Assembly (NCBI GenBank): GCA_024641545.1
Contig: JAHECW010000017.1
Coordinates: 1 to 48,709 of the forward strand
Source of the DNA: Acidobacteriota bacterium
GTDB taxonomy: Bacteria; Acidobacteriota; Thermoanaerobaculia; Thermoanaerobaculales; Sulfomarinibacteraceae
Reading direction: 5' to 3'
Length of the DNA stretch: 48,709 nucleotides
The notes under the pieces were generated by a model, which was not told the origin of the DNA, ran no database searches, and saw only the letters and a program-made list of their open reading frames with translations. The position numbers and the translations under genes are program-made. This document shows positions 2,530 to 43,171 of the stretch, in pieces (within the stretch, counting starts at the first letter, position 1; the number at the start of each line of letters is the position of its first letter).

Positions 2530-2614
2530 TTTGAGTTCGTGATTATTCATCGCACAGTTTCGAGAAACGGTTGCGATGTAATCGAGAATCAAGAACTGAA
2601 AATTTGAAATTGGA
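2530..2614. repeat. Heptad-array palindromic element, copy R1
   Basis: AT-rich element between the convergent pepT and ygfZ-TPR genes. The core is CATCGCA (2548-2554) with an inner GTTTC-GA-GAAAC hairpin, then TGCGATG (2572-2578). To the right are 7-bp units starting at 2580: AATCGAG, AATCAAG, AACTGAA, AATTTGA, AATTGGA. Weaker heptads lie to the left up to the pepT stop. The same core and heptads recur at five other places in the window. Confidence 0.85.
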
Positions 2615-2619
2615 ACGGC

Positions 2620-4221
2620 TCACGGCGCTCGCTTCACGAGCGCCGTGAGCCGTTCCTGCATCTTCTGCGCGGTGGCGAGATCGCCCTTTCGGGCGGCGAT
2701 GTCAATCCCCCGCTCATAGACGTCGCAGGCGCGGACGGCGTCACCGAGACCCTCGACGGCGGCGCCGAGCGACAAGATTGCAGCCGAGTGGGAGGGATCG
2801 CTCCTGACGGCACTCTCAAGGTGATCAACGGCGCGGTCGAACTGACGGCGCTCCAGGGCGAGCTCGCCCAGGCCGAAGTGTGCGAGAGCGTCTTCGGGAT
2901 CGATCTCGAGGACCTGGAGAAACAACATCTCGCGTCGGGTCCGATCGGCCTCCCGGTCCACGGCCTCCTCGCCGAGTGTTTCCTCAGAACCGGCCGTCGC
3001 CGAGCCCCCGAACGACAGCCGCGTCGCGAGTGCCAGGTGGCGCTCCGCCGATTCGATGTCGCCGAGTTGGTTGTAGAACAGCGACAGGTTCGAATGCGCC
3101 ATCACCGATGACGGATCGACCTCGAGCAGCCGGCGCATCCGATCGATGGCCTCACGGTGGCGGCCGAGCCGACCGAGGATCACACCCATGGATTCAAAGG
3201 CGTCCGCCGAGGTCGGGCAGATCATCGTCGCGCGCTCCAGGAGCTCGAGCGCGCGATCGCTGTGGTCCTCGGCAAAAGCTGCGGAGGCGGCCACCGTGAG
3301 CCGGTCCGCCATCTCCTCGCGGCTCGGCGGGCGCAGGATCGGCGCCGGATGAACCCCGACCCGCACCGATCGGCCATCGGCGAAGGTACAGATCATTTCG
3401 CGCCCGATGACCCTGAGTTCCCGGTGGAGCGAGACCTGAAGCCAGCGGCGGTTCTCCCAGCGGGCCGCCGACAGGACCTGCCCGGCACGCCCGCGCTCCC
3501 CGACATCGAACCACTCCCCCACCACCCGATCGGGGAGGATGCCGGTCTCGGCGACTTCGAGAAGCATCGGCGCCCGCACCGCGCCGCGATGGGACGCCAC
3601 CTTCGCAACCGTTTCCTGACCGAGATAGCAGCCCTTGCTGAACGACACCGCGCTGTCGAGGAGGGAGGTCTCGTTGATCAACTGGTCGCGCTGAATCTCG
3701 CGCCCCCATTCCGGCGGTCCGCCCAGGGTTCTCCGGGTGTCGAGCTCCTCCTCCGACAGGTCCGGGAAACCGAGTTCGCGGTCCCTCCAGGTCACGAATC
3801 CGCGCCCACCCCACCCGGCGACCGGGAAGCGGTCGGCGTCGCCGTTCTCGTCGATCATCGCCACCGCGGCGGGCCCGAGGACGATCCGCATGGGACCGAC
3901 CCGGCGTCGCCGGATCGTCACGTCGTCGGCGATGATGTGGCCTTCGAGCCTGTCGACGCAGTGCTCCGCGACCGCCTCGGGAAGCAGAAGCTCAAAGCAC
4001 CCGCTGATCCTTCGGAGAAAAAAGAACGCCTGCACCCGCCCGCTGCGGTCGAGCAGTGCCGACAGCTGCGACCCACCCTCGTCAAGGGCGGTCAGATCAG
4101 ACGTGACCTGGCTCGAGAGAAACCGCTCGCGGTGGCTTCCCGTGACCTCGACGAGCGCCCAGCCCGGCAAGGGGGCGACGACGCCGTCGAGGTCAATCGC
4201 CTCAGACGGAGAACGACTCAC
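2620..4221 (-). CDS. ygfZ: YgfZ/GcvT-fold iron-sulfur maturation protein fused to TPR repeats
   Basis: About 533 residues. The first ~300 form a folate-binding YgfZ/GcvT domain with 'RERFLSSQVTSDL' near the N-terminus and the family signature 'KGCYLGQE' (conserved Cys near residue 198). YgfZ proteins help assemble or repair certain 4Fe-4S enzymes using tetrahydrofolate. Residues ~305-533 are an added tetratricopeptide array ('ALELLERATMICPTSADAFESMG', 'LLEVDPSSVMAHSNLSLFYNQLGD', 'LEIDPEDALAHFGLGELALERR'), which ordinary YgfZ (~325 residues) lacks. The start is uncertain: the GTG at 4221 is used, overlapping the A-type carrier gene by 20 nt. An ATG at 4245 is possible, and neither has a clear ribosome site. 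It is the third gene of a minus-strand Fe-S operon, which supports the function. Confidence 0.88.
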   Translation of the reverse strand: MSRSPSEAIDLDGVVAPLPGWALVEVTGSHRERFLSSQVTSDLTALDEGGSQLSALLDRSGRVQAFFFLRRISGCFELLLPEAVAEHCVDRLEGHIIADDVTIRRRRVGPMRIVLGPAAVAMIDENGDADRFPVAGWGGRGFVTWRDRELGFPDLSEEELDTRRTLGGPPEWGREIQRDQLINETSLLDSAVSFSKGCYLGQETVAKVASHRGAVRAPMLLEVAETGILPDRVVGEWFDVGERGRAGQVLSAARWENRRWLQVSLHRELRVIGREMICTFADGRSVRVGVHPAPILRPPSREEMADRLTVAASAAFAEDHSDRALELLERATMICPTSADAFESMGVILGRLGRHREAIDRMRRLLEVDPSSVMAHSNLSLFYNQLGDIESAERHLALATRLSFGGSATAGSEETLGEEAVDREADRTRREMLFLQVLEIDPEDALAHFGLGELALERRQFDRAVDHLESAVRSDPSHSAAILSLGAAVEGLGDAVRACDVYERGIDIAARKGDLATAQKMQERLTALVKRAP

Positions 4222-4540
4222 CGCAGCCGCAGGTGTTGCTGGCATTGGGATTGCGGAAGACGAATCCCTTGCCCTTGAGCCCATCCTCGAAATCGAGGGT
4301 CACATCCTTGAGGTAGATCGCCGACTTGGGGTCGAGCAGGAGTTCGAAACCATTGAAATCGAGGATGTTGTCGTTGGTTCTGGTCTCGGAGAACTCCATC
4401 TCGTAGGACAGGCCGGAGCACCCACCCCCGACCACGCCGAGGCGGAGACCGACGCCGGCGCTCGGCCTCTCGCGCTCGAAGATCGACCGGATTTCCTCAA
4501 CCGCCCGCTCGGTGACGGTCACCAGGCTGGATGCGCTCAT
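4202..4540 (-). CDS. erpA: A-type iron-sulfur carrier (ErpA/IscA/HesB family)
   Basis: A 112-residue protein with the three invariant cluster cysteines: Cys41 in 'GGGCSGLSYEMEF' and Cys104/Cys106 in 'NTCGCGESF' at the C-terminus. A-type carriers accept 2Fe-2S or 4Fe-4S clusters from a scaffold and pass them to apo-enzymes. The ATG at 4540 overlaps the glutaredoxin stop as ATGA and has AAGGGG upstream, so it is preferred to the GTG at 4546. It lies between a CGFS glutaredoxin and YgfZ, all acting in cluster trafficking. Whether it is ErpA or IscA in the strict sense cannot be decided from sequence alone; no iscS/iscU lies nearby. Confidence 0.93.
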   Translation of the reverse strand: MSASSLVTVTERAVEEIRSIFERERPSAGVGLRLGVVGGGCSGLSYEMEFSETRTNDNILDFNGFELLLDPKSAIYLKDVTLDFEDGLKGKGFVFRNPNASNTCGCGESFSV

Positions 4541-4938
4541 GAGCACGCCCCTTTGACCAGGGTCTCGAGCTCACCGGTCTGGAGCATCTCCATCATGATG
4601 TCGTTGCCGCCGATGAACTCGCCTCCGACCCAGAGCTGCGGGAAGGTGGGCCAACTCGCGACCTGCTTGGCGGCGGCGCGGATCGACTCGTCGGAGAGGA
4701 TGTCAAAGGTCCGGTACGGAACCCCCATGGTCTCGAGGATCGCGACCGTGTTGGCCGAGAACCCGCACTGGGGCTGTTCCGGCACGCCCTTCATGAAGAG
4801 AAAGACAGCCGCCGAAGCGATGAGCTTTTCGACCCGTTCGAGGGCCGGCGCCGTGCGATCGACCTCATCGACCGGCGCACCCAGAAACGACGGCTCGGGC
4901 GAACCGCCGGTGATTCGGAAGGGGTTGGAATCGTTCAT
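4537..4938 (-). CDS. grxD: Monothiol CGFS glutaredoxin (Grx4/GrxD type)
   Basis: A 133-residue protein whose thioredoxin fold starts near residue 35. It carries the monothiol active site 'KGVPEQPQCGFS' (Cys58), followed by 'VPYRTFDILSDESIR' and the glutathione-binding 'WPTFPQLWVGGEFIGGNDI'. Monothiol CGFS glutaredoxins bind a bridging 2Fe-2S cluster with glutathione and hand it to A-type carriers, which is what the next gene encodes. Residues 1-30 are an extra low-complexity leader not typical of E. coli GrxD. The ATG has GGAGG upstream. First gene of the minus-strand operon grx-erpA-ygfZ; its stop overlaps the next start as ATGA. Confidence 0.95.
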   Translation of the reverse strand: MNDSNPFRITGGSPEPSFLGAPVDEVDRTAPALERVEKLIASAAVFLFMKGVPEQPQCGFSANTVAILETMGVPYRTFDILSDESIRAAAKQVASWPTFPQLWVGGEFIGGNDIMMEMLQTGELETLVKGACS

Positions 4939-5123
4939 GAAGATCGGTCCTCCAGGTTCAGAAACGGCACGATCAGTGCTCGCTTGAGAAAAAACCTGAG
5001 ATCCGATCGCGATATTTCCGTTCCCTCCAGATCGGCGTTGAACCGGGACCTGCCGGGACGACTCCGGATCACCACGAGCAACCGCGTGCTAAGCTCCGAG
5101 GCAATCCGCCGGGGGGGTCTTTC

Positions 5124-6902
<1,779 letters not shown>

Positions 6903-6905
6903 CAC

Positions 6906-7799: not shown

Positions 7800-8842
7800 G
7801 CGCGCCGCTGACCATCGTCGTCGGTTCGGGCGGGGTCGGAAAGACCACTCTGGCCGCCGCCATCGCCGCCGACGAAGCGCGCCGCGGCAACGACACCCTG
7901 GTGATGACCTTCGACCCTTCGCTGCGGCTCAAAGACGCCCTCGGCGTCGATGTCGATCCCGAGTCCAACGAGATCAGGGTGCCGATGGACGCGCCCGGCG
8001 AGCTGTGGGCGAGTCTGCTCGATGCGCGCAGGACCTTCGACACGCTCGTCGACCGCTACGCCCCGGACGACACGGCACGTCAGCGAATCCTCACCAACCG
8101 GTTCTACGACCATCTCTCGGGAAGTCTGGCCGGCGTCCTCGAGTACATGGCCTCGGAACGGCTCTTCGAGGTCGCGAGCTTCGGAAAGTACCAGCGGGTC
8201 ATCCTCGACACGCCACCGACCCGGCAGGCCCTCGACTTCCTCGGCGCGCCCGAGAGAATCGTCTCCTTCCTCGAATCGGGCGCACTCCGGATCGCCCTCA
8301 AACCCTGGTTCGACGCCAACGGCAACTTCAAGGCCATGGCCAGGCTCGGGGTCCTCGGTCGCAACGTGGAGGCGTTTTTCGACCGCATGGTCGGAATGGA
8401 GCTGCTCCGCGACATGGCCGAGTTCTTCCAGGCCTTTACGCCGCTCTACGACGGATTCGTCGAGCGCGCCCTCGAGGTTCAGAAGATGCTGCGGTCGGAT
8501 GCAACCAGCTTCACGCTGGTGAGCGGACCCGGTGAACAGCGGGTGGCCGACACCCTCTTTTTCGCCCGCAAGCTCAGCGAGGCCGGCTACCGGCTCGGGC
8601 CCATCGTGGTCAATCGGGTTCACCCGAAGGTCGATGCCGCGCCCGAGGTCGTCAATCTCGCTGACGGCCGCGGCCTCCTCGCCTGGCTCGGCCGGCGCGA
8701 TCACCAGGGCGTGGCGCAGCTCCGCGATCTCCTCGGTGACTCGCACCCGTTGGTGGTCGTGCCGCTGCGGCCCGACGAGCCGACCAACCTCGAGTCCCTC
8801 GCCGAGCTCGGCGCGCTGCTGCGCGAGCAGCTCAAGGGTTGA
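7796..8842 (+). CDS. ArsA/Get3-like P-loop ATPase, subunit 2
   Basis: A 348-residue partner of the preceding ATPase. The start is GTG at 7796, overlapping the previous stop as GTGA, with GAGG 5 nt upstream. Its P-loop reads 'VVGSGGVGKTT': the position of the signature Lys of deviant Walker A (K in KGGVGK) is Ser, whereas subunit 1 keeps it. Switch I is 'TFDPSLRLKDALG' and switch II is 'VILDTPPTRQALDFL'. A C-terminal segment 'GPIVVNRVHPK' is typical of the family. The asymmetric P-loops suggest an obligate heterodimer in which one site differs. Last gene of the operon; its TGA touches a heptad-repeat element (R2) on the boundary with the convergent crp-type gene. Confidence 0.9.
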   Translation: MSAPLTIVVGSGGVGKTTLAAAIAADEARRGNDTLVMTFDPSLRLKDALGVDVDPESNEIRVPMDAPGELWASLLDARRTFDTLVDRYAPDDTARQRILTNRFYDHLSGSLAGVLEYMASERLFEVASFGKYQRVILDTPPTRQALDFLGAPERIVSFLESGALRIALKPWFDANGNFKAMARLGVLGRNVEAFFDRMVGMELLRDMAEFFQAFTPLYDGFVERALEVQKMLRSDATSFTLVSGPGEQRVADTLFFARKLSEAGYRLGPIVVNRVHPKVDAAPEVVNLADGRGLLAWLGRRDHQGVAQLRDLLGDSHPLVVVPLRPDEPTNLESLAELGALLREQLKG

Positions 8843-8937
8843 ATCCTCAATTCTCAATTCTGAATTGTCATCAAGACGCATCCCTGTTCGCCAGGGTGTG
8901 CGATGCGCTGCGATGTCATCAAGAATGGAGAATCAGC
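8842..8937. repeat. Heptad-array palindromic element, copy R2
   Basis: Left heptads start on the last base of the upstream stop codon: AATCCTC, AATTCTC, AATTCTG, AATTGTC (8842-8869). The core carries a CCCTG-TTCGC-CAGGG hairpin (8882-8896) and TGCGATG (8899-8905). Right heptads AATGGAG and AATCAGC (8924-8937) contain the stop codon of the converging regulator gene (8933-8935). It fills the whole convergent gap. Confidence 0.8.
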
Positions 8938-9622
8938 TCCCGAGCCACTCCGCGAGATCGGCGAGGCGTTTCGGGTCGAGGACCTTCACGGTCGTCGATC
9001 CGGTCTCGATGATCCCGTCCTCCTCGAGGTGTTTGAAGGTCCGCGACAGCACTTCAGGGCCGGTGCCGCACTCCGCGGCCACCAGGTGCTTGGGCTGACC
9101 GAGCTCGATGACCTCGCCCGGCGCCACTTCCCTTCGCCCCGCTCGCCCCATCAGAAAGAGCGCCAGCCGCTCCTCCACTCGACGCTGGGTCAGCATCTCG
9201 AGCTTGCCGGCGAGGGTCCGGGTCCAGGCCGAGACCGAGCCGATCATCGCCAGTCCGAGCTCGGGAGAGCTGCGGATCAGCGTCACGAGGTGGCTTCGTG
9301 ACAAGCACCAGACGACGCTCGACTCCACCGCCTCGGCGGTGGCCGGATAGCCGCCCGAACCGAAGAGCGCCGCCTCGGCGAAGGACGCCCCGGGCGACAC
9401 CAGGTGAAGCAGCAGCTCGCGCCCCTTCGGCGAGTAGCGCACGAGCTTGATGCGGCCCGAAACCACCGCGCACAGACTCTCCGCCGGATCACCCTCGTGG
9501 AAGAGGATCTCTCCCTTGGCCAACGAATGGATGTGCCCCGCGGCGAGAACGCGCTCGCGGTCGTCATCGGCGAGCAGGTGGAGGAGTGGGAGCCGGCGCA
9601 GCATCTCGGAGGTGTCGGACAT
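8933..9622 (-). CDS. Crp/Fnr-family transcription regulator (FNR/DNR-type recognition helix)
   Basis: A 229-residue regulator with an N-terminal cyclic-nucleotide-binding-fold domain ('LAKGEILFHEGDPAESLCAVVSGRIKL', residues ~35-61; 'SPGASFAEAALF' ~76-87), a long dimer helix near 130-160, and a winged helix with recognition helix 'GTGPEVLSRTFKHLEEDG' (~186-203). The Glu190-x-x-Ser193-Arg194 pattern is that of FNR/DNR proteins, which read TTGA half-sites, not the CRP pattern. The N-terminal cysteine set of oxygen-sensing FNR is absent, so any signal is different, possibly heme/NO as in DNR or HcpR. The ATG at 9622 has no ribosome site, but TATACT lies 7 nt upstream, suggesting a leaderless mRNA. 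A matching TTGAC-N4-GTCAA site lies before the octaheme cytochrome gene at 15105. Confidence 0.93.
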   Translation of the reverse strand: MSDTSEMLRRLPLLHLLADDDRERVLAAGHIHSLAKGEILFHEGDPAESLCAVVSGRIKLVRYSPKGRELLLHLVSPGASFAEAALFGSGGYPATAEAVESSVVWCLSRSHLVTLIRSSPELGLAMIGSVSAWTRTLAGKLEMLTQRRVEERLALFLMGRAGRREVAPGEVIELGQPKHLVAAECGTGPEVLSRTFKHLEEDGIIETGSTTVKVLDPKRLADLAEWLGS

Positions 9623-9629
9623 GACGAAG

Positions 9630-9635
9630 AGTATA
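9630..9635 (-). promoter_or_regulatory. -10 box for a probable leaderless transcript of the Crp/Fnr gene
   Basis: On the minus strand TATACT ends 7 nt before the ATG at 9622, the spacing expected if transcription starts at the ATG itself. There is no Shine-Dalgarno sequence in this gap. No good -35 box is seen. Confidence 0.5.
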
Positions 9636-9659
9636 GCGAGCCTATCGCACCGGGCTCCA

Positions 9660-9745
9660 GATTCTTGATTCTTTATTTTGAATTGCCATCGCACAGCATC
9701 GAAAACGGTTGCGATGTAATTAAGAATTAAGAATTAAGAATTGAG
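9660..9745. repeat. Heptad-array palindromic element, copy R3
   Basis: Left heptads GATTCTT, GATTCTT, TATTTTG, AATTGCC (9660-9687); core CATCGCA (9687-9693) to TGCGATG (9710-9716); right heptads are four in perfect register: AATTAAG three times and AATTGAG (9718-9745). After the inserted 185-bp element, two more heptads (AATTTAG, AATTACT, 9920-9933) run into the stop codon of the 4Fe-4S gene, so the array seems to have been split. Confidence 0.85.
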
Positions 9746-9923
9746 CCTTTTGCAAAAAGCCTGGTTCTCGGAGAATCAACGTCCCAGGTCGTGACGCCGG
9801 CGAGGGCGCCGGCGCTACAACAGGCTGAGATCCATTGTGGGGCCGGCGCCCTCGCCGGCCTGATGGTGGCGAGGATCGGGAAACCTCAATGGCCAGTTCC
9901 TGAATTTTGCAAGAGGCTCAATT
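9739..9923. mobile_element. 185-bp nested inverted-repeat (MITE-like) element
   Basis: The outer arms are 19-bp inverted repeats with one mismatch (9739-9757 and 9905-9923; they carry GAGCCTTTTGC and its complement GCAAGAGGCTC). Inside lies a perfect 18-bp inverted repeat (9796-9813 and 9842-9859), GC-rich and itself built of CGCCGGCG words. There is no coding capacity and no transposase nearby, so if mobile it would need help in trans. The element sits inside heptad array R3 and makes up most of the 306-bp gap between the regulator and the 4Fe-4S gene. Nothing else is visible in that gap. Confidence 0.65.
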
Positions 9924-9928
9924 TAGAA

Positions 9929-10960
9929 TTACTCCGTCATCGCCTGTCCGCCGACGTGGGAGTACACCGGCGAGTCGACCTCCTGCAGGCGCTCGTGGAA
10001 CTCGGCCTCGGTGACCGTGGTCCGCCAGTGGCCGGTGACGCGGAAGCCGGTGACGACGGCGAGATAGAGACCGATGGCCAGCAGCGAAGCGGTCGCGGGG
10101 CGCAGCCACCGCGAACGGCCGGCCGCCAGCGGCGGTCGAACCGCGAGGCAGCCGTCCACGGGACAGGCAACGACGCAGTCCTGGCAGCTGGTGCATTCCA
10201 CCGAAGCGACCCTGGTCATCCCGTGCACCGGGAGCCGGCCGGGGCAGACCTTGGTGCAGGCGTGGCAGTCGGTGCACAGGGCGGGGTCCCGGGTGACCTT
10301 GAGCGGGGCGAGGATGCCGAGCAGACCCACCAGCGCACCGTAGGGGCAGAGATAGCGGCACCACAAATCGCGGACGAAGACCGAGCCGACCACGAGCACT
10401 CCAAGGACCGCGATGGTGAGTCGCGTGGGCGACGCGAAGAAGAGCCACATCTTGGCGTCGACGATCTTCGCGTAGGGGCTTGCCAGAAAGCTCTCGATCG
10501 CCGGCGGATCCATGACCCACCAGATCGCCCAGGCAAAGAACCCGAGGAGCAGGTACTTGAGCCCGCGCAGGGGAATGTCGAGCCACTTCGGCGGCGTCAG
10601 CGTCCGACCCGTGATCCGGATTCCAAGGCGCCCGAGCAGCTCGGAAAACAGACCCACCGGACAGACGTGCGAGCAGAACGACTTCGCCACCACCACCGAC
10701 ATCAGGCAGATTCCGATGAAGATGGCGAGCCCGGCGGGGTGGATCGGATCGATGGAACCGGTCGAGAGCAGGTGGCGCAGCCCCATCATGCCGTCGATGG
10801 GAAGGAAGGCCTCGACCCCGGGCGGGCGGGAGACCGAGGGCCACCGACCCGCGAGGTGGGGCATCACCCAAAGGCTGAATTGGACGCCGATGGCGATCGT
10901 CACCGCCGCAACGGCCCACTGAATCACTCGCCTCGTCGTCGGTACCCGGTGCACAACCAT
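9929..10960 (-). CDS. Membrane-bound 4Fe-4S ferredoxin-type protein (NapH/NosR/CcoG-like)
   Basis: A 343-residue membrane protein with a first transmembrane helix at ~12-32, further helices around 75-95, 135-155, 185-205 and 290-310, and membrane-facing Cys motifs 'FCSHVCPVG' and 'WCRYLCPYGAL'. A cytoplasmic di-cluster domain follows: 'CTDCHACTKVCP' (~230) and 'CTSCQDCVVACP' (~255). This layout is that of NapH/NosR-like quinol-oxidising or electron-transfer proteins. The ATG at 10960 is preferred over TTG 10963 because GGAGGGG lies upstream. It is the last gene after the ECF transporter genes with a 67-bp gap, so it may be co-transcribed. The electron partner is not visible here. Confidence 0.88.
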   Translation of the reverse strand: MVVHRVPTTRRVIQWAVAAVTIAIGVQFSLWVMPHLAGRWPSVSRPPGVEAFLPIDGMMGLRHLLSTGSIDPIHPAGLAIFIGICLMSVVVAKSFCSHVCPVGLFSELLGRLGIRITGRTLTPPKWLDIPLRGLKYLLLGFFAWAIWWVMDPPAIESFLASPYAKIVDAKMWLFFASPTRLTIAVLGVLVVGSVFVRDLWCRYLCPYGALVGLLGILAPLKVTRDPALCTDCHACTKVCPGRLPVHGMTRVASVECTSCQDCVVACPVDGCLAVRPPLAAGRSRWLRPATASLLAIGLYLAVVTGFRVTGHWRTTVTEAEFHERLQEVDSPVYSHVGGQAMTE

Positions 10961-16480: not shown

Positions 16481-16488
16481 CAGTTGTG

Positions 16489-16598
16489 GATTATGAGTTG
16501 TGAATCAGGAATTGCATCCCACCATCGCACCGCCGCTGTTGGCCGGATGCGCCGTCATTCAAGAATCATCAATTCACTATCCATAATTGAGAGTCACT
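16489..16598. repeat. Heptad-array palindromic element, copy R4 (degenerate core)
   Basis: Left heptads GATTATG, AGTTGTG, AATCAGG, AATTGCA (16489-16516); a core with CATCGCA but a decayed right half; right heptads AATCATC, AATTCAC, TATCCAT, AATTGAG (16564-16591), then AGTCACT, which contains the terC stop codon (16594-16596). It fills the convergent gap after the terminator. Confidence 0.75.
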
Positions 16599-17388
16599 TC
16601 TTCCGTCGCCGCAGCTCGACCGGCGTCTGCTCACGCTTGCGCTCGAGCCAGTTCTGGTAGAAGTCCACCGAGAACATGAACAAGAGAATGAAGATGGTGA
16701 TCCACTGCGGGATGTATGGGAACTCGCCTTCGTTGATCGTCAGGTGCGCCACGTGGCCGCCCTCGAGGAAAAGCACGAAACCGATGAGCAGGAGCACGAA
16801 GAGACCGAGAATCTCGAAGTCGGGGTTTCGGTGCATGAAATCGGCGATCGGACCGGCAAAGACCAGCATGAGCGCCACCGAGATCACCACTGAGCCCATC
16901 ATCACGAGGAAGATGTCGGTCATCCCAACGACGGTGAGGATCGAGTCCACCGAGAAGAGCAGGTTGAGGCTGACGATGGTGACGAGCACCTGACCGAAGC
17001 CCGCGGCCTGCCCGACCTCGTGCTCGACCCCTTTGATCTTGTGCCGAAGCTCTTTGACACCCGACCAGATGAGGAAGATCCCGCCCCCGACCAGCACCAG
17101 GGCCTTGACGCTGACGGAACCGTCGAAGTGGATTCCGAGAATGGTGCCGTCGAGCTCGTAGAACGACGCCGTGGCGAAGCGCAGAACCCAGCTCACGACG
17201 GCGAGCAGGGCGATTCTGAAGAACATCGCCAGGATCAGCCCCCACCGTACCGCCTTCTTCTGCTGATCCAGGGGCAACTTCTTGGCGAGGATCGTGATGA
17301 TGATGAGGTTGTCGGCGCCGAGGGCGATCTGCACGAGCGTCACCGAAACGAGCGCCAACCAGAATCCGGGTTCGAGAAAAAGGCCCAT
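16594..17388 (-). CDS. TerC-family integral membrane protein
   Basis: A 264-residue protein with about seven transmembrane helices. The two family motifs are present: 'LGADNLIIITILAKKLP' in helix 1 and 'LLFSVDSILTVVGMTD' in a later helix. Both carry acidic residues in the membrane that form a probable metal-ion path. TerC/Alx/YkoY proteins export manganese or help metalation of secreted enzymes; the tellurite-resistance name is historical. The C-terminus is highly basic ('ERKREQTPVELRRRKK'), as expected for a cytoplasmic tail. The ATG at 17388 follows GGTGA/GGAGG. Same strand as the PepSY gene upstream, with a 37-bp gap. Confidence 0.93.
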   Translation of the reverse strand: MGLFLEPGFWLALVSVTLVQIALGADNLIIITILAKKLPLDQQKKAVRWGLILAMFFRIALLAVVSWVLRFATASFYELDGTILGIHFDGSVSVKALVLVGGGIFLIWSGVKELRHKIKGVEHEVGQAAGFGQVLVTIVSLNLLFSVDSILTVVGMTDIFLVMMGSVVISVALMLVFAGPIADFMHRNPDFEILGLFVLLLIGFVLFLEGGHVAHLTINEGEFPYIPQWITIFILLFMFSVDFYQNWLERKREQTPVELRRRKK

Positions 17389-19595: not shown

Positions 19596-20000
19596 ATGCC
19601 AGAGCGCAACCGAACCAGAGAAACCCGCCAACGTCGCGTGGTCTACGACACCATCAAGAAAACCCACTCCCACCCGACCGCGGATTGGATCTTCGAACAG
19701 GTTCGGGCCGCGGTGCCGAAGATTTCGCTCGGAACCGTCTACCGCAACCTCTCGGTCCTCAAGGACGAAGGAATCGTCCGCGAGATCTATGGCTTTGACC
19801 GGCGGGCGCACTACGACGCCGACCTCTCGCCGCACGCCCACTTCATCTGCTCCGATTGCGGTCAGATCTGGGATGTCTTCGGCGTCCCGGAAATCGACTG
19901 GCGAACCCTCAAAGAGCTGGTCGGCTGCGAAGTCAACGACCAGCGTCTCGACTTCCAGGGTCGCTGTGCCGCATGCCGCGTCGCCGAGAACAAGAACTGA
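19596..20000 (+). CDS. Fur-superfamily regulator, PerR type
   Basis: A 134-residue repressor with a winged helix at the N-terminus ('TRQRRVVYDTIKKTHSHPTADWIFEQV', 'ISLGTVYRNLSVLKDEGIV') and a metal-binding dimer domain. Structural-zinc cysteine pairs are Cys85-x-x-Cys88 and Cys124-x-x-Cys127. The regulatory site fits PerR: His26 ('HPTAD'), Asp74 in 'HYDADLSPHAHF', His80 and His82. The Asp matches the PerR residue that permits iron-catalysed His oxidation. A peroxide-sensing role is therefore predicted, not shown. The ATG at 19596 has AGGGGG six nt before it and is preferred over a GTG at 19560. No Fur/PerR box was recognised upstream, and no catalase or peroxidase gene lies nearby. Confidence 0.9.
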   Translation: MPERNRTRETRQRRVVYDTIKKTHSHPTADWIFEQVRAAVPKISLGTVYRNLSVLKDEGIVREIYGFDRRAHYDADLSPHAHFICSDCGQIWDVFGVPEIDWRTLKELVGCEVNDQRLDFQGRCAACRVAENKN

Positions 20001-20002
20001 CT

Positions 20003-20105
20003 CTGAATTCTAAATTTAAAATTCATCATTCTTGATTACATCGCAACCGTTTCTCGAGGCTGTGCGATGAAATTGAGAGTTAACAATTGAGAATCAAGAA
20101 TTGAC
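20003..20105. repeat. Heptad-array palindromic element, copy R5 (inverted relative to R1)
   Basis: On the minus strand, heptads AATCAAG, AATGATG, AATTTTA, AATTTAG, AATTCAG (20037 down to 20003). The core is CATCGCA (20039-20045) to TGCGATG (20063-20069). The right array is in exact register: AATTGAG, AGTTAAC, AATTGAG, AATCAAG, AATTGAC (20071-20105). The stop codon of the NifU-domain gene (20094-20096) lies within the fourth heptad. It fills the convergent gap. Confidence 0.88.
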
Positions 20106-20351
20106 AGGGACGACGCGTTCGATTTCGGGCGCATAGAGGCAGATTCGGTCGGTGACGAAATCCGCCAGCGTGGATTTGGCCATGGGGCAGCCGTCACAGG
20201 CGCCCTGGAGCTCGACATAGACGACCGCGCCTTCGATGCGAACCAGATCGACATCGCCGCCGTCCGCCTGGAGCGCGGGTCGCACCTCCTCGATGGCGAA
20301 GCGGACCCTCGACTCGAGATCTCCGGTGGGCCACCCGGCGGGGGCGCTCAT
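20094..20351 (-). CDS. Small NifU C-terminal-domain (Nfu) iron-sulfur scaffold protein
   Basis: An 85-residue protein consisting only of the Nfu domain: 'FAIEEVRPALQADGGDVDLVRIEG' and the cluster site 'LQGACDGCPMAKSTL' with Cys52 and Cys55. Two such domains bridge a 4Fe-4S cluster in a dimer and pass it to targets. It complements the grx-erpA-ygfZ operon elsewhere in the window. The last codons and the TGA lie inside a heptad-repeat element, so the natural C-terminus may have been altered by it; the domain itself is complete. The ATG overlaps no neighbour. A perfect -35 hexamer TTGACA lies on the minus strand at 20388-20383, but the -10 is weak. Confidence 0.92.
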   Translation of the reverse strand: MSAPAGWPTGDLESRVRFAIEEVRPALQADGGDVDLVRIEGAVVYVELQGACDGCPMAKSTLADFVTDRICLYAPEIERVVPVNS

Positions 20352-33115: not shown

Positions 33116-33140
33116 GGAGCAATCTCCGCCACTTTCATCA

Positions 33141-35717: not shown

Positions 35718-35722
35718 CGGCC

Positions 35723-35763
35723 ATTCTCGACGAATCCGGCGAAGCGGTCAACGCGGGTATAAT
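35723..35763. promoter_or_regulatory. Divergent promoter region between the GT fusion and the methyltransferase-kinase gene
   Basis: Minus strand: TTGACC (35751-35746), 17-bp spacer, GAGAAT (35728-35723), only 5 nt before the ATG at 35717, predicting a leaderless mRNA. Plus strand: a consensus TATAAT at 35758-35763 with no good -35, giving a leader of about 40 nt with a GGAGA ribosome site before the ATG at 35811. The two core promoters nearly touch, so one protein could control both. Confidence 0.6.
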
Positions 35764-35810
35764 CCCGACCGAGGACCGAGCAGGCCAGCCCCGAAGTTTT
35801 CGGAGATTGA

Positions 35811-38069: not shown

Positions 38070-38117
38070 ATTTCAAGCGTCGTTGATGGTCATCGCCGGG
38101 GCCCTGCGGCGCCGGCT

Positions 38118-39245
38118 TCACCGATTCATCGATCGCCGCCACTGCGGGCCGATACCACCTTCGAACCCGTCGACGAAAATCGGCGGCGAAGCGCATCTCG
38201 CGCCCCGGCCGGGATCGCGACCGACGACATAGAGCGAGAGCTGGCGGCGTCCGCGCTTGTTGTAGTGGCGCAGGCTCGGCAGGACGATCTCGTCGCCGGG
38301 CACCACCACCCCTCCGAATGAGATCTGATCTTCGCTCTCGACGAGGACCTCCGGTGCGGTCCACGAACGTCCGAGATCGAACGATCTCCGCATCAGGATC
38401 GACGCGCGATCGTACGACCCTCCTCCGGCCCGCTCATCCGAAGATGCCACAAACCAGAGCTCACCGTCGGGAAAGAGGACATAGCCACCGGGCTCCACAT
38501 CCGCGCCGTCCCAGATCACCGTGCCCTCCGACCACGACCGGCCGGCGTCGATCGAGCGCCGCTGCAGCACCCAGGAGGGAGCGGCCTCGGCCCTCTCGAG
38601 CTCATAGGCCAGGAGCAGCGATCCGCCGCCGAGATGGACGCTTCGGGTGTCTTCGACGTGCCTTCCGCGACGACCGCTGACCACCGGTTCCCCCCCCGAC
38701 CACGCGGCTCCCCCATCGAGAGAACGGTAGAGCAGAACCGTATAGACCGCGTCGTTGAGATCATCGGGGCGATCGACGTGCGTCGCAAATAGAATCACCT
38801 CGCCGCCCGGCAACGACTGGAGGTGGGTGTCGATGAAGAGACCGTCGCCGGCATCGGCCACGATCGGCGCCGACCAACCGCCGTCGGGATCCTCGGCCAT
38901 GACCAGCAGGCGGCGGGGCGCCTTCGGCTCGGAGCACGAAATCAGCAGGCGACCGTCGAGCTCGACGACGTCGGGCCAACTGCAGCTCAACGGCAGATCC
39001 TCGCGTCGCCAGCTGTACCCGAGATCGGTCGAATGCAGGAGCTCGACACCGCCGCCGACCAGGACCAGCTCGCCCGACTCCCGAAGCAGCGCAGCCACGT
39101 CGCCCGTCGCGCCGGCCACCCGGCAGTCGGGTGCGGTGGTCGCGGTCCGAGGCGTCTCCACCGGACCGAGAGACGCGCAACCCGTCAGCGCAACGAAACC
39201 GAGGGCGAGAATGAATATCCGAGCCGACCACATGCCCTGCATCAT
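38118..39245 (-). CDS. Sialidase-like (BNR/Asp-box) lipoprotein
   Basis: A 375-residue protein with a lipoprotein signal peptide; the lipobox 'LTGC' puts the lipidated Cys near residue 23. It contains four Asp-box (S-x-D-x-G-x-x-W) repeats, 'STDLGYSW', 'SLDGGAAW', 'SIDAGRSW' and 'SFDLGRSW', spread over a six-bladed beta-propeller. Family members include exo-alpha-sialidases and many non-enzymatic propellers. The catalytic Arg triad/Tyr cannot be confirmed by eye. The protein ends with 'IFVDGFEGGIGPQWRRSMNR', the same kind of tail as the genes at 22737 and 46541. ATG at 39245 (ATG 39233 possible). It is convergent with the methyltransferase-kinase gene. Confidence 0.8.
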   Translation of the reverse strand: MMQGMWSARIFILALGFVALTGCASLGPVETPRTATTAPDCRVAGATGDVAALLRESGELVLVGGGVELLHSTDLGYSWRREDLPLSCSWPDVVELDGRLLISCSEPKAPRRLLVMAEDPDGGWSAPIVADAGDGLFIDTHLQSLPGGEVILFATHVDRPDDLNDAVYTVLLYRSLDGGAAWSGGEPVVSGRRGRHVEDTRSVHLGGGSLLLAYELERAEAAPSWVLQRRSIDAGRSWSEGTVIWDGADVEPGGYVLFPDGELWFVASSDERAGGGSYDRASILMRRSFDLGRSWTAPEVLVESEDQISFGGVVVPGDEIVLPSLRHYNKRGRRQLSLYVVGRDPGRGARCASPPIFVDGFEGGIGPQWRRSMNR

Positions 39246-39289
39246 ATCCGTTTCCGACCCTCAACTCTCTTCGGGGTGGAGCGGGCAGA

Positions 39290-39375
39290 TTGTGGTGCGC
39301 GCGTCTCGCGCGCACGGGGTGTCGAGAGTCGGAAGACCGGAACGGCTCCCTGCGGGCGGGACGCCCGCACCACAA
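39290..39375. repeat. REP-like hairpin doublet E3
   Basis: Two perfect hairpins, GTGCGCGCG-TCT-CGCGCGCAC (39295-39315) and TGCGGGCG-GGA-CGCCCGCA (39351-39369), are enclosed by a 10-bp terminal inverted repeat TTGTGGTGCG (39290-39299) / CGCACCACAA (39366-39375). It contains CTCCCTGCGG (39346-39355), also found in E2. It occupies the 211-bp divergent space between the sialidase-like gene and the GT4 gene. No transposase is near. Confidence 0.75.
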
Positions 39376-39456
39376 AGCCGATCGGTTCTTTGAGCGATGG
39401 CGAGACCGAGACCGGAAGCCCATCTCCGACGACTGGGCTAAACTGGCCCGGCTTCA

Positions 39457-41307
39457 ATGGATCTCACTCACCTCCCCCGCCGTCTCGCCACCGCGGCCAA
39501 ACGAAAGCTGGATGATCGAGCCTATCGCCGCGCCCTCGCGCGCGGCGAACCGGCCGGCGCTCTCGCCTATCGATTCGTCGGCTGGGAGCAACCCGATCCG
39601 GCGCTGGTCGAGCTCCGGCTGCGGGCGGACGGACCGGGTGCGGTCGCCTACGCGGACGCACTCCGCTGGTGTCGCCGCCAGACCCTTTCGGAACTCCGCG
39701 CGGTGGGCTTTCGGGCCGACGGAGAAGAGGCCTGGCGGATCGAGCCCGGGGACGATCGACTCGCGGGCGTCGCCGCCTCGTGGTTCGCCGCACCCGGCTC
39801 TCTGCCGGATGTCATTTCCGCCCACCTCGAGACCTGCATGCTCACCGCCGCGGCCGAGGCCGTCGACGCCGTCGTGCTACTCGAACGCGTCGCGGCCTTC
39901 AGCGGCGAGGCCGTCGCCGACATCGACGCCGTACACCGGGCCGCCCTTCGCCCGTGGGCCCTCTATCGCCGCGACGCCTACACCTGGGATGCCGCAACCG
40001 ACACCGTCCGCCCCACCCGCGGTGATCGTCTGGCCAAGCTGATCGGCACCGCCGGTGTCGCCGACATCCCGTTCACCAGCGCAACCTTCAATCGCCGCCG
40101 CCGAGGGCCGTACCTCAGCGACGTCGATTTCGGTGCCGTGGCCCGGATCGCCCTTCGCGACGCCTCCCTGCTCGACCGCCGCGCAGCGAGCGACGAGCGA
40201 CCCGCGGTGCTCGTCCTGGCGCCCTTCCTCGCTCGCGGCGGGGCCGAGCAGACGCTCCACGCCACCATGGAAGCTCTCAGCCGGCGCTTCCGCTTCTCCA
40301 TGGTCACGCTGGCGCCCCACCGCGCGGCTCTCGGCGACCGTCGGGAGGATTTCCTCGAAATCACCCAGCGGATCCTCTGCCTCGGCGATCTCGTCCACCC
40401 TGACGCCATGGTCGGAATCCTCGAGGCCCTCCTCGACGCCACCGGCGCCGAGATCCTCTACAACGCCAACGGCACGACCCTGTTCTACGAATTCGCCCCC
40501 CGGCTCAAGGCGGGGCGGCCCTCGTTGCGGATCATCGACCACCTCTACGACCACCGCATCGGCTATATCGAAAGCTACCTCCCCGGGGTCGAGGAGTCGG
40601 TGGACGCCTGCGTCGCCGAGAACCGGCCCATCGCCGAGGTCCTGGTGCGGGACCGCGGCTGGCCCGAGACCCGGGTGCCGGTGATCTGGCCGTGCGGCCG
40701 CCCCGACGACGCCCTTCCTCCCGAATCCGACAGGGACCGGCTCAGGGACGCGATCCGGCACGAGTTCGGATTCAACGATGACGATGTCGTCTTCCTGGCG
40801 GCCGCCCGGATGCACCCGCAGAAACGCCCCCTCGATCTGGTTGCCCTGGCGGACCGGGTCCGCGACCTCGAAACGGTTCACTTCATCCTCGCCGGCGGCG
40901 GCGATCTCGCCGACGAGGTCGATGGCGCCATCGCCGCCCACGACGGCGCCCGGATTCGGCGGCTCGGATTTCGAAACGACATCCCCGACCTGATCCTGGC
41001 GTCGGACGTCGGTTGTCTGGTGTCGGAGCACGAGGGCCTGCCGGTTTTCATGCTCGAGTGCCTGCAGCTCGGCCGGCCGTTTCTCGGCACCCGGGTCGGG
41101 GATCTGGGCGCTGTGCTCGACGACACCGGCGCCGGCCTCGTGGTGGATCGCCCGGGCGATCTCGACGCCCTCGAGGCGGCAGTGCGTGCGCTCGCGGATC
41201 CCGCAACCCGCGCCGGGCTCGCCGAGCGGGCGAGGAGCGCCGCGCCGCGTTTTTCGGTGGCCGTCTGCGCCGACGCCTATGCACACGTATTTCTGGGTGA
41301 ATCCTAG
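39457..41307 (+). CDS. GT4 glycosyltransferase with N-terminal extension
   Basis: A 616-residue protein. The first ~240 residues are an alpha-helical or degenerate domain with no family I recognise. From ~248 ('RPAVLVLAPFLARGGAEQTLHATMEAL', the GGAE glycine loop) there is a GT-B glycosyltransferase ending with 'VVFLAAARMHPQKRPLDLVALADRV' and the E-x7-E motif 'SEHEGLPVFMLECLQLGRP'. It transfers a nucleotide-activated sugar to a growing glycan, donor unknown. The ATG at 39457 lacks a ribosome site; TAAACT (39439-39444) lies 12 nt before it. The next gene starts directly after its TAG and is a paralog. Confidence 0.88.
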   Translation: MDLTHLPRRLATAAKRKLDDRAYRRALARGEPAGALAYRFVGWEQPDPALVELRLRADGPGAVAYADALRWCRRQTLSELRAVGFRADGEEAWRIEPGDDRLAGVAASWFAAPGSLPDVISAHLETCMLTAAAEAVDAVVLLERVAAFSGEAVADIDAVHRAALRPWALYRRDAYTWDAATDTVRPTRGDRLAKLIGTAGVADIPFTSATFNRRRRGPYLSDVDFGAVARIALRDASLLDRRAASDERPAVLVLAPFLARGGAEQTLHATMEALSRRFRFSMVTLAPHRAALGDRREDFLEITQRILCLGDLVHPDAMVGILEALLDATGAEILYNANGTTLFYEFAPRLKAGRPSLRIIDHLYDHRIGYIESYLPGVEESVDACVAENRPIAEVLVRDRGWPETRVPVIWPCGRPDDALPPESDRDRLRDAIRHEFGFNDDDVVFLAAARMHPQKRPLDLVALADRVRDLETVHFILAGGGDLADEVDGAIAAHDGARIRRLGFRNDIPDLILASDVGCLVSEHEGLPVFMLECLQLGRPFLGTRVGDLGAVLDDTGAGLVVDRPGDLDALEAAVRALADPATRAGLAERARSAAPRFSVAVCADAYAHVFLGES

Positions 41308-43062
41308 GTGGCGGCCCCAGCCCTCGGTCGCCGCCTCCAGGCCCTCTTCTGGGAGTTCAGCCCGGCGCTTCGCCGACACCTGAGGAGTCTGCGCAAATCA
41401 GTCTCCGTCGTGCTCCACCGGGCCCGCCGCCTTGCCGCCCCGGGCACGGGCCCGCGGATTGTGGCGGTACGTGCGACATCGCCGACGCCGGTGCTCCCCG
41501 ACCCGGCGGTGACCATCATCGGCGCGGCCCGGGACGACGGCGCCGCGTTCATCGCGCACGGGCGCGGTCTCGAAGCACTGCCCCCGTGGCACATCGAGGC
41601 CATGCTCATGGCCGCCGCGGCCGAGGACCTGAACTGGGTTGCCGCCGGTTGGGCGCCACCCGCCCCGGGCCGTCACGGGCCGTCGGGGGTCGTCCTGCGC
41701 GACCCGCAGATTCCGGAATCGGCTCATCTCCTCCTGCGCCGGCCGACCGCGGCCCGGGCTCGGTGCGCAGCGGTGACCGGGCGCGCCCTCCCCCACATCA
41801 CTTCCCCGGAAAACTGCGACGGGCTCAGACCCATCGCCGAGCACACCACTGCAGCCGGGCCGCACCGGATTCGACCCGACCTGGCCGCCGCAGCCGTCGT
41901 CGAGAGTCCGTGGTTTCCGGTGGACGAGGCGCTGGCCCGGTTCCCCGCCGTCGATGGGCCGCCGACGGCGCTCTTCCTCCTGCCCTTCCTCGCGGTGGGC
42001 GGCGCCGAGCGGCTGCTCTTCGAGCTCATGGCGGGCCTCGGAAACCGCTATCGGCTCGTCATCGCCACCACCGATCCCCACCTCGAGTCCTTCGGCCAGA
42101 CCGTCGACCGGGCGCGGCGGCTGACCCCCCACGTCTACACCCTCGGCGACTGGCTGCCGCGAGAGGCGGTGCCCTCGGCCATCCGCCACCTCATCCGGCG
42201 CTGGAGGGTCGAGAGCCTCGTCTGCTGGAACGGTTCGGTCACCTTTTATGACGAGGTTGCGGACCTTCGCCGGGTCTTTCCCGAGCTCCACATCGTCAAC
42301 CAGCTTTTCAACCACCGGGGCGGGTGGATCGATCACTTCTCACCGACGCTCATCCGCTCGGTGGACACCCAGATCGCGGTCAACACCCCCATCGCTGAGG
42401 CCCTGGTGACCGAGCGGGGGGTCCCCGAGAACCGTGTGGTCACCATCCATCACGCGGTCGGTCCACCCGAACCCCGAAACCTTGATCGCCGCGCCAGCCT
42501 CCGCCGGGAGCTCGGCGTCGACGACGCCACAATGGTGGTGGGCAGCTTCATCCGGATGCACCCGCAGAAGAGACCCCTGGACATCATCGAGCTCGCCCGC
42601 CGCATGACCGGCGACAAGATCCACTTCTTTCTCGTCGGCGGCGGTCCGCTCGATGGCGCCGTCAACCGGGAGGTCGCCCGCAACCGGCCGCCGAATCTGA
42701 CGAGATGGCCTCTTCAGCACGACGCGACGGCGCTCTACGACGCCATCGATCTCTGCCTGATGACCTCCACCTTCGAGGGACTGCCGATCTTCCTCCTCGA
42801 CGGTCTCGCCCGCGGCATACCCTGCGTCGCAACCGCGGTCGGCGACATCCCGTTGCTGGTCGGCGACGGCGGCGGCCGGGTCGTCGAACGCGCCGGCGAC
42901 CTCGATGAGCTGGCCGCCGCCCTCCGCGCCTACCTCGACCCCGACCACCGGCGATCCGATGGCGAGAAGGGCCGCTCCGTCGTCGAAACCCGGTTCGGCC
43001 TCGACCGCTACCTCGCCGCCTACGAGGCGGCGATCTTCCGCCGCGGGTGCGGCGAAAGATAA
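41308..43062 (+). CDS. GT4 glycosyltransferase, paralog of the preceding gene
   Basis: A 584-residue protein with the same layout: a ~215-residue N-terminal region, then GT-B with 'PTALFLLPFLAVGGAERLLFELMAGL', 'VVGSFIRMHPQKRPLDIIELARRM' and 'STFEGLPIFLLDGLARGIP'. The second acid of the E-x7-E nucleotide-sugar motif is Asp here (E-x7-D), a conservative change that may alter activity. GTG start at 41308, contiguous with the upstream stop (TAGGTG), so translation is coupled. It shares the block 'RMHPQKRPLD' with its neighbour, suggesting a tandem duplication followed by divergence. Its TAA is overlapped by heptad element R6. Confidence 0.87.
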   Translation: MAAPALGRRLQALFWEFSPALRRHLRSLRKSVSVVLHRARRLAAPGTGPRIVAVRATSPTPVLPDPAVTIIGAARDDGAAFIAHGRGLEALPPWHIEAMLMAAAAEDLNWVAAGWAPPAPGRHGPSGVVLRDPQIPESAHLLLRRPTAARARCAAVTGRALPHITSPENCDGLRPIAEHTTAAGPHRIRPDLAAAAVVESPWFPVDEALARFPAVDGPPTALFLLPFLAVGGAERLLFELMAGLGNRYRLVIATTDPHLESFGQTVDRARRLTPHVYTLGDWLPREAVPSAIRHLIRRWRVESLVCWNGSVTFYDEVADLRRVFPELHIVNQLFNHRGGWIDHFSPTLIRSVDTQIAVNTPIAEALVTERGVPENRVVTIHHAVGPPEPRNLDRRASLRRELGVDDATMVVGSFIRMHPQKRPLDIIELARRMTGDKIHFFLVGGGPLDGAVNREVARNRPPNLTRWPLQHDATALYDAIDLCLMTSTFEGLPIFLLDGLARGIPCVATAVGDIPLLVGDGGGRVVERAGDLDELAAALRAYLDPDHRRSDGEKGRSVVETRFGLDRYLAAYEAAIFRRGCGER

Positions 43063-43171
43063 TTGCGAATTATGAATGATGAATTGCCATCGCAGAGCGC
43101 CATCTGCGACGTTGCGACGTTGCGACGTTGCGACGCGATTCATAATTCAAAATTCATAATTTAAAATTGAT
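43061..43171. repeat. Heptad-array palindromic element, copy R6, with 8-bp tandem repeat core
   Basis: Left heptads AATTGCG, AATTATG, AATGATG, AATTGCC (43061-43088) begin within the upstream stop codon TAA. Core left half CATCGCA (43088-43094). The right half is replaced by four 8-bp units TGCGACGT/TGCGACGC (43105-43136). Right heptads GATTCAT, AATTCAA, AATTCAT, AATTTAA, AATTGAT (43137-43171). Confidence 0.85.

What the first reader, a model, noticed from the sequence alone, without database searches (positions are those of the whole stretch)
2530..43171. Dispersed AT-rich heptad-array elements with a palindromic core (six copies)
Six intergenic elements (2530-2614, 8842-8937, 9660-9745 plus 9920-9933, 16489-16598, 20003-20105, 43061-43171) share one architecture. 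A palindromic core (consensus CATCGCACAG...GGTTGCGATG) is flanked on both sides by 7-bp units close to AATTNAG, kept in strict 7-bp register even where the bases vary. They are the most AT-rich DNA in a GC-rich window. R1, R3 and inverted R5 share most core bases; R2, R4 and R6 have changed cores with intact heptads. Short heptamer repeats are known in cyanobacteria (STRR), but the combination with a palindromic core in this type of genome is not one I recognise. It may be a non-autonomous mobile repeat or a recombination or transcription-boundary element.
Basis: seen in the sequence. Interest (0 to 1): 0.85.

Follow-up and report, generated by a model that had tools for sequence, protein, structure and literature searches.

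The report
Word-armed hairpins at bacterial gene ends
The six AT-rich repeats belong to a large family of hairpin-forming DNA elements, built from stacked 7-letter words, that sit at gene ends in an Acidobacteriota bacterium; they look like stripped-down copies of units that carry the poorly understood S23p gene, known from insertions in ribosomal RNA, and similar word-built arms flank that gene in sampled bacteria of other phyla.

Summary
At least 72 such places lie in the window's genome (an Acidobacteriota MAG), with inverted arms of AATTNAN heptads around a core ending CATCGCA...TGCGATG. They abut stop codons: of 68 with both neighbours called, 32 lie between convergent, 34 between codirectional and 2 between divergent genes. 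In two congeners, orthologous convergent gaps are nearly closed (5 of 37 resolved), hold a 7-8-bp word array, mostly of other words (17), or hold none that is significant (15). Two of those arrays are longer versions: inverted heptad arms around an S23p gene (PF05635, 23S rRNA-intervening-sequence protein). Inverted flanks surround 27 of 30 distinct strong-scoring S23p genes of this class, against 7 of 105 control genes, and 15 of 15 fetched plasmid S23p genes (13 Cyanobacteria, one Gemmatimonadota, one Alphaproteobacteria). Two Nostoc plasmids show reciprocal empty and filled sites. Best reading: ORF-less, MITE-like relatives of S23p-bearing heptad-armed mobile units. The mobility enzyme is unknown; S23p resembles, below the curated cut-off, the retroelement accessory Avd, so an RNA route is possible but untested.

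The parts
2526..2618 (+). R1: heptad arms around core 2548-2578; fills the gap between stop codons of a convergent M20 peptidase gene (+) and a TPR gene (-)
8840..8938 (+). R2: heptad arms around a changed core (about 8869-8915, by reading); convergent ArsA-like gene (+) and Crp-like regulator (-)
   Evidence: not in the covariance-model list
9658..9745 (+). R3: heptad arms around core 9687-9716; right arm AATTAAG repeats; its neighbours are codirectional
9743..9919 (.). Second dispersed palindromic repeat (ends GAGCCTTTTGCA / TGCAAGAGGCTC) sitting inside the right arm of R3
   Evidence: (blastn copies in other fetched loci), boundaries read
9920..9933 (+). Continuation of the right arm of R3 after the inserted repeat
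   Evidence: by reading
16484..16600 (+). R4: degenerate heptad arms, changed core; convergent gene (+, no Pfam hit for the part scanned) and TerC gene (-)
   Evidence: not in the covariance-model list
19998..20107 (-). R5: heptad arms around inverted core 20039-20069; after the FUR-family gene stop, convergent gap
43058..43172 (+). R6: heptad arms around an expanded core with an 8-bp tandem (CGACGTTG); after the stop of a glycosyltransferase gene, codirectional gap

Best explanation
R1-R6 are ORF-less (MITE-like) members of a family of mobile hairpin units. A complete unit has two inverted arms, each an array of 7-bp (sometimes 8-bp) words, around a core that carries an S23p/23S_rRNA_IVP gene. 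In the short form the gene is gone and only the core ends (CATCGCA...TGCGATG in this genus) with a loop of mostly 16-37 bp remain. Shown here: the architecture, the dispersal, the gene-end location, near-empty orthologous gaps, replacement by other words at the same sites, and S23p-bearing versions at the same sites and in several phyla. Inferred: that the short ones derive from the long ones; that both move; that S23p (an Avd-like four-helix-bundle protein) is the mobility accessory, perhaps on an RNA or single-strand hairpin intermediate with an enzyme supplied in trans; and that units survive at stop codons because insertion there does least harm, the words supplying new stop codons and a hairpin 3' end. 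How arms change length and spelling (word slippage, arm-to-arm copying) is a guess.
For: At least 72 places in the genome; 31 core matches against 0 reversed controls. Gene context 32 convergent, 34 codirectional, 2 divergent of 68; among gaps of 60 bp or more in the same stretches 31/33/2 with elements against 10/78/31 without (Fisher p 4e-9 for convergence). Of 102 3'-facing gene ends, 35 have their stop codon inside the 28-nt arm window; examples of C-termini extended by word-coded residues relative to orthologues. Orthologous gaps (23 sites, all convergent; 46 comparisons, 9 unresolved): of 37, 5 are under 30 bp, 17 hold a 7-8-bp array at p <= 0.01 (by reading 15 of the 17 with words unlike AATTNAN/AATCNAN) and 15 do not. 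The G102 orthologue of the C155 gap and the G101 orthologue of the C274:31566 gap hold an S23p ORF (interrupted in G101) between inverted arms with CATCGCA-like ends. Class scan: PF05635 in 68 of 148 genomes; in 23 of 24 genomes with AATT heptads against 45 of 124 without. Inverted flanks (at least 17 of 21 bases) around 27 of 30 distinct strong S23p copies against 7 of 105 control genes with the same windows, both flanks periodic 18 of 30 against 5 of 105; 15 of 15 fetched plasmid copies, 0 of 32 other genes of a Nostoc stretch. Reciprocal empty/filled junctions in two Nostoc plasmids. The Coxiella 23S IVS, also S23p-coding, is reported to have GACAGAT heptads and a 28-bp terminal stem (PMC4990558 passages).
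Against: No transposition was observed and no mobility enzyme identified; presence/absence could also be loss. No consistent target duplication: 3 bp at one Nostoc junction, none at the other (by reading). Core loops of the short elements were not aligned to S23p units; only 3 of 7 congeneric S23p loci examined have CATCGCA-like ends, and the two armed own-genome copies fetched (L294, L295) do not. A weaker PF05635 subgroup lacks heptad arms: of 13 loci with flanks, 3 pass the inverted cut, through 6-bp repeats; it includes 3 of the 5 own-genome copies fetched of 8 matches. The strong group was cut at 127 bits after seeing the scores. One S23p unit is at the same junction in all three species (L295, L299, L310), so turnover is not universal. 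15 of 37 resolved orthologous gaps hold no significant array. Over all 53 S23p ORF fragments, inverted flanks are 32 of 53 and both flanks periodic 24 of 53; one periodic flank is common in control genes too (35 of 105). Class co-occurrence is not corrected for phylogeny. In sampled loci of other genomes of the class, arrays are less strictly at gene ends.
Confidence: 0.62

Rival explanations
1. Bidirectional transcription terminators or mRNA 3'-end stabilisers kept by selection: both transcripts of a convergent pair fold the same hairpin.
For: Location at stop codons, 32 of 68 spanning convergent gaps; hairpin folding with z -2.0 to -6.5 in R1-R6; some of the same sites occupied with other words in congeners.
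Against: Orthologous convergent genes can lie close together with no element (gaps -4, 6, 15, 15 and 26 bp). No U-tract (read from sequence). Heptad triplets do not covary position by position (0.643 against 0.620 with heptads permuted within the element, 73 of 1000 permutations at least as high).
Confidence: 0.15
2. Plain heptameric tandem repeats (STRR-like) that expand locally by polymerase slippage; inversion and core are incidental.
For: Heptamer arrays are common in bacterial gaps (PMC4692102, PMC4679880 passages); word families differ by genome.
Against: The arrangement around a shared core recurs at least 72 times, opposite arms are as alike as neighbours on one arm (0.643 against 0.649), and S23p ORFs sit between inverted arms in several phyla.
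Confidence: 0.12
3. REP/BIME-like elements moved by a RAYT (Y1_Tnp) transposase.
For: Short palindromes, intergenic, 3' of genes.
Against: Y1_Tnp in 119 of 148 class genomes against heptad arrays in 24; 2 copies in this genome and 0 found in G111 (65% complete). The neighbourhoods of the two own copies were not examined.
Confidence: 0.04
4. Protein-binding array (nucleoid or replication boundary) with dyad symmetry; S23p association is hitch-hiking.
For: Register with three heptads equal to about two helical turns (inference); small word vocabulary AATT + CAT/GAG/CAA/AAG.
Against: Words often change between congeners at the same site, which a sequence-specific binder would not be expected to tolerate.
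Confidence: 0.05

Closest known systems
23S rRNA intervening sequences (IVS) with S23p, e.g. Coxiella, Leptospira
   Same: Hairpin with inverted terminal stem, S23p ORF in the loop, heptameric repeats (GACAGAT) beside the ORF in Coxiella (PMC4990558 passages).
   Different: Here units lie in intergenic gaps at gene ends rather than in rRNA genes, arms are word arrays, and the window's copies lack the ORF.
Heptameric repeats of Xanthomonas and Nostoc (GGGAATC, GGGGAYT)
   Same: 7-bp words, paired inverted arrays in Xanthomonas (70 and 75 cases), close to or overlapping stop codons, under-represented between divergent genes (PMC4692102 passages).
   Different: G-rich; studied there as quadruplex-forming sequences. 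The passages read do not mention S23p or a conserved core, and report 83% of the repeats at the same gene context in two Xanthomonas genomes.
Cyanobacterial STRR heptamers and trnL P6b stems (TDNGATT / NNTGAGT)
   Same: Stem built of heptads on both sides of a loop, with repeated replacement of one word class by another (PMC4476775 passages; STRR recalled).
   Different: One intron stem-loop; no ORF or gene-end location in the passages read.
TAACTGA repeats of Beggiatoaceae
   Same: Heptamer arrays giving stops in all three frames (PMC4679880 abstract and passages).
   Different: Direct repeats, mostly just upstream of start codons; one inverted case reported.
MITEs / REP-BIME elements
   Same: Short, intergenic, palindromic, no ORF.
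   Different: No transposase partner recognised; Y1_Tnp distribution does not follow the elements.

Membership tests
23S rRNA IVS / S23p element | Encodes S23p (PF05635/TIGR02436) | tested here: not met
   R1-R6 (88-117 bp) are too short for the ~360-bp gene; longer units at two orthologous sites have it (G102 copy E 7.9e-42).
23S rRNA IVS / S23p element | Terminal inverted repeats forming a long stem | tested here: met
   Arm pairs 75.7% paired in 28 elements, 80.6% with the core, against 29-43% when slid; but arm inversion is significant on its own only in R3, R5, R6.
23S rRNA IVS / S23p element | Location inside a 23S rRNA gene and excision by RNase III | tested here: not met
   Intergenic at protein-gene ends; excision not testable.
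MITE (non-autonomous transposon) | Dispersed multicopy, no ORF, inverted ends | tested here: met
   At least 72 places; inter-arm cores 28-78 bp.
MITE (non-autonomous transposon) | Autonomous partner with the same ends | tested here: inconclusive
   S23p units with CATCGCA-like ends in 3 of 7 congeneric loci; enzyme not identified.
MITE (non-autonomous transposon) | Empty sites and target duplication | tested here: inconclusive
   Near-empty gaps in 5 of 37 comparisons and two reciprocal plasmid junctions; duplication 3 bp at one junction, none at the other.
REP/RAYT | Associated Y1_Tnp gene | tested here: not met
   Distribution over 148 genomes does not follow the arrays; neighbourhoods of Y1_Tnp genes not examined.
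Heptameric STRR | Tandem 7-bp units in intergenic DNA | tested here: met
Intrinsic terminator | GC-rich stem followed by U-tract and transcript 3' ends | not tested
   No U-tract seen by reading; no RNA data; terminator scan not run.
Diversity-generating retroelement | Avd accessory protein above curated cut-off with RT and template repeat | tested here: not met
   S23p reaches NF033474 (Avd) at E 5.4e-11, 42.7 bits, below the cut-off of 80, and bAvd at 33.9 bits, below 40; RT and template not searched.

The most novel reading that the evidence does not exclude
S23p genes and the heptamer repeats scattered through many bacterial phyla are two parts of one previously unrecognised cross-phylum class of mobile elements: word-armed hairpins moved, probably through an RNA intermediate, with the help of an Avd-like protein. 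The classical 23S rRNA intervening sequences are members that landed in rRNA genes, and STRR-type heptamer arrays are largely their ORF-less remains.
Probability: 0.4. Interest if true: 0.92.

Novelty: new variant of a known kind. Interest (0 to 1): 0.85.

Why it matters
Heptamer repeats have been reported in several bacterial groups without an agreed origin, and S23p, annotated as a 'four helix bundle protein', has no known function (PMC4990558 passage); older proposals that IVS are mobile and that the ORF helps them move (cited in the same passages) were, in what I saw, not tied to other data. Finding inverted word arms around S23p genes in Acidobacteriota, in 13 cyanobacterial plasmids and in one plasmid each of Gemmatimonadota and Alphaproteobacteria, and ORF-less versions at the same gene-end sites, gives both puzzles one testable frame. 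The word switching at orthologous sites also offers a natural experiment on how short tandem arrays are rewritten.

Tried and rejected
RAYT link: Y1_Tnp distribution does not follow the arrays. Base-pair covariation of the arms: arms share vocabulary within an element (0.643 against 0.522 with arms shuffled between elements, 0 of 1000; 56 of the 72 elements, those scoring 60 or more) but not position by position (73 of 1000), so no proof of an RNA stem (the excess over shuffles can come from shared vocabulary). RNA families: no Rfam match in the window at gathering scores. All-frame stop codons as a designed feature: 36% of arms entering, 29% exiting, 11% shuffled, so hardly directional. Literature: ten searches listed no paper that, from title and abstract start, joins S23p to intergenic heptad arrays; the library lacks most subscription journals. 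Phages: tblastn gave 8 weak records, 4 annotated as Avd or accessory variability determinant, 1 as four helix bundle protein, 1 hypothetical, 2 unannotated; not pursued. Controls: a first control had only 5 genes; one search gave 3 of 105 with shorter windows; with windows matched to the S23p test it is 7 of 105. Of those 7, one is the window gene between R2 and R3, and two (in L312) lie where one search places S23p copies that I had not excluded. A 39-bp gap with a 6-bp period (C102 in G102) met p < 0.01 but was set aside as too short and is counted among the 15. The model scored 150 of 1179 candidates, so 72 is a lower bound. The stretches fetched for gene context were chosen because they hold elements, so one search is not genome-wide. 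Of 53 eligible elements, 24 (all convergent, best-scoring first) were prepared for the orthologue test and 20 sent. Plasmid S23p: 15 of 41 records fetched, mostly the best-scoring; some are related insertions (L319 and L322).
Full report
Where it is. The window is contig C9 of a 5.38-Mb, 310-contig, 99.4%-complete unnamed assembly. The best named relative of its TerC gene, at 86%, is a contig of 15,226 bases titled Thermoanaerobaculales bacterium MAG_Ve_Sed_50 (L117); contig C253 of congener G102 has the same length, so I take G102 to be that MAG and the window to be Acidobacteriota (inference).

Observation. R1-R6 are as described. Lag-7 identity is raised in all six, and the exact core is unique to R1, R3 and R5. 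The elements are part of a family: 31 cores CATCGCA-N12-42-TGCGATG against 0 for the reversed pattern; 382 heptad matches against 28; and 72 places found by a covariance model built from 28 copies. Lengths of the 31 exact cores are 30-32 bp (20), 42-44 bp (9) and 51 bp (2). The heptad, read outward, is AATTNAN; CAT, GAG, CAA and AAG make up 268 of 336 triplets in 56 elements. Within the class the core is enriched in the genus (31, 10 and 11 in its three genomes) and in G111 (11, mostly one repeated core of about 43 bp); the other 144 genomes have 0-6, not examined for arms. The R3 split is caused by another repeat sitting inside its arm.

Where they sit. With a codon-model gene caller, 68 elements have both neighbours called: 32 lie in convergent, 34 in codirectional and 2 in divergent gaps. 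In gaps of 60 bp or more of the same stretches, those with elements are 31/33/2 and those without 10/78/31 (p 4e-9 for convergence). Of 102 gene ends facing an element, 35 have the stop codon inside the 28-nt arm window and 47 more within 28-45 nt of the arm's inner edge; distances such as 9, 16, 23, 30 and 37 are over-represented by eye. Comparison with orthologues shows C-termini extended by residues coded by the words (e.g. VEHGTRTTNSQL* against VEHGTR* and VEHGAR*), so some arrays have invaded coding ends.

Orthologous gaps. Flanks of 13 + 7 elements and of R1, R2 and R5, all convergent, were located in the two congeners. Of 46 comparisons 9 are unresolved. Of 37 resolved, 5 gaps are under 30 bp, 17 hold a 7-8-bp array at p <= 0.01 in 200 shuffles, and 15 do not; a few of the 15 still show a CATCGCA/TGCGATG-like core by eye. 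By reading, 15 of the 17 use words unlike the window's (AATGATG, AGCTGAC, GACTGTC, AACTNAN, AATGAAA, an 8-bp CTAACCTC and others; in C83 and C301:37164 of G102 the 8-bp period comes from repeated TGCGATGG), while R5 in G101 (AATCGAG) and C301:11892 in G102 (AATTATG) use close ones. R3's gap in G101 also holds a CATTCAT-word element; R4's gap is rearranged around TerC in G102 and shows no clear element there.

The S23p link. In two of those gaps the element is longer and holds an ORF: G102 at the C155 site, and an interrupted copy in G101 at the C274:31566 site. The G102 protein is PF05635 23S_rRNA_IVP (E 7.9e-42) and TIGR02436 'four helix bundle protein', with weaker, below-cut-off matches to bAvd and to the diversity-generating-retroelement protein Avd; its closest solved structures by sequence are 2gsc (XCC0516) and 2rld. 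Across the class 68 of 148 genomes have PF05635: 17 of 20 in family f1, 18 of 18 in f3, 8 of 17 in f2, the one f4 genome, and scattered others. Of 24 genomes with AATT heptads 23 have it, against 45 of 124 others (not corrected for phylogeny; a few of the 24 have only 1-2 array matches). Taking S23p loci above 127 bits in my own model (a cut chosen after seeing the scores), 30 distinct copies have both flanks held: 27 have inverted flanks at 17 or more of 21 bases and 18 have both flanks periodic at 7 or 8 bp, against 7 and 5 of 105 control genes. Two of the three misses (L266, L271) show arms when flanks are measured from the ORF ends. Words differ among most copies, and the period is 7 in 55 of 65 periodic flanks. 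A lower-scoring subgroup (13 loci with flanks) lacks heptad arms; 3 of these pass the inverted cut through 6-bp GGCAGC repeats. Four other lower-scoring loci (L295, L299, L310, L311) are armed.

Other phyla. tblastn against plasmids found 41 records, mostly Nostocales and other cyanobacteria. The 15 fetched (13 Cyanobacteria, Gemmatirosa, Azospirillum) all have inverted flanks around S23p (17-21 of 21). In a 49-kb stretch of Nostoc plasmid pNe_5, S23p is the only one of 33 tested genes (35 annotated) so flanked, and four of its five 7-bp arrays form two inverted pairs: one around S23p and one ORF-less in the convergent gap between a restriction endonuclease gene and mobF. Plasmids pC052_D and pNsp_c share three adjacent genes; each carries an S23p unit at the junction where the other has none (gene A / gene B against gene B / gene C), with different words. 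That is strong evidence that whole units are gained or lost at stop-start junctions.

How it probably works. Shown: architecture, dispersal, gene-end location, presence/absence, word replacement, S23p-bearing forms. Inferred: short elements are internally deleted forms; S23p assists movement; an RNA or single-strand hairpin intermediate is plausible because of the Avd resemblance and the hairpin form, but no enzyme was identified and no RT search was made. Gene-end location may reflect either targeting or survival, and I cannot separate them.

Compared with the literature. Heptamer arrays near stop codons, including inverted pairs, are described in Xanthomonas (PMC4692102, passages); TAACTGA arrays in Beggiatoaceae (PMC4679880, abstract and passages); heptad-built trnL stems with repeated class replacement in Nostoc (PMC4476775, passages); and GACAGAT heptads with a 28-bp terminal stem in the S23p-coding Coxiella IVS, with older proposals of mobility (PMC4990558, passages). 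None of the passages or listings I saw joins S23p to intergenic word arrays. So the kind is known in pieces, and the combination is new as far as these searches go.

Check.

Noticed in passing
window 9743-9919; copies in L121, L126, L133, L218, L223, L225: A second dispersed palindromic repeat (ends GAGCCTTTTGCA/TGCAAGAGGCTC, 80-98% identical copies). At R3, L121, L126, L133, L223 and L225 it lies in or within a few bases of a heptad arm (L218 is cut by a contig start), suggesting the arrays are landing sites for another mobile repeat.
   Followed up: partly
G101 and G102 orthologous gaps (L170, L172, L239, L243, L256, L259, L330, L333): Some orthologous gaps hold other repeats instead, e.g. 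GGAGCAGGCTTCCAGCCTGCTCC and GTGCCAGGTGAAACAAAGTTAACAATC in G102, a TTGTTCGCGGCGAACAATG hairpin in G101, and 9-bp CGCAAAGAA-type arrays in G102.
   Followed up: no
G001: The reversed control pattern (TTAA heptads) is strongly enriched there (355 places against 15), so that genome may use a TTAA word family.
   Followed up: no
L314, L316 (Pseudanabaena and Anabaena plasmids), L315: S23p units sit between CRISPR-cas genes, twice between cas6 and cas4 with different words, once between cas10 and a Cmr3-family gene.
   Followed up: no
L296-L298, L300-L306, L308, L309, L312, L313: A lower-scoring PF05635 subgroup without heptad arms, several copies near contig ends; possibly a different kind of gene.
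   Followed up: partly
window 16594-17388 against G102:C253: The TerC gene next to R4 is inverted relative to its neighbours in G102, with a breakpoint at the R4 gap.
   Followed up: no
L295, L299, L310: One S23p unit with AATGATG words lies at the same gene junction in all three congeneric genomes; the own copy has an internal stop.
   Followed up: partly
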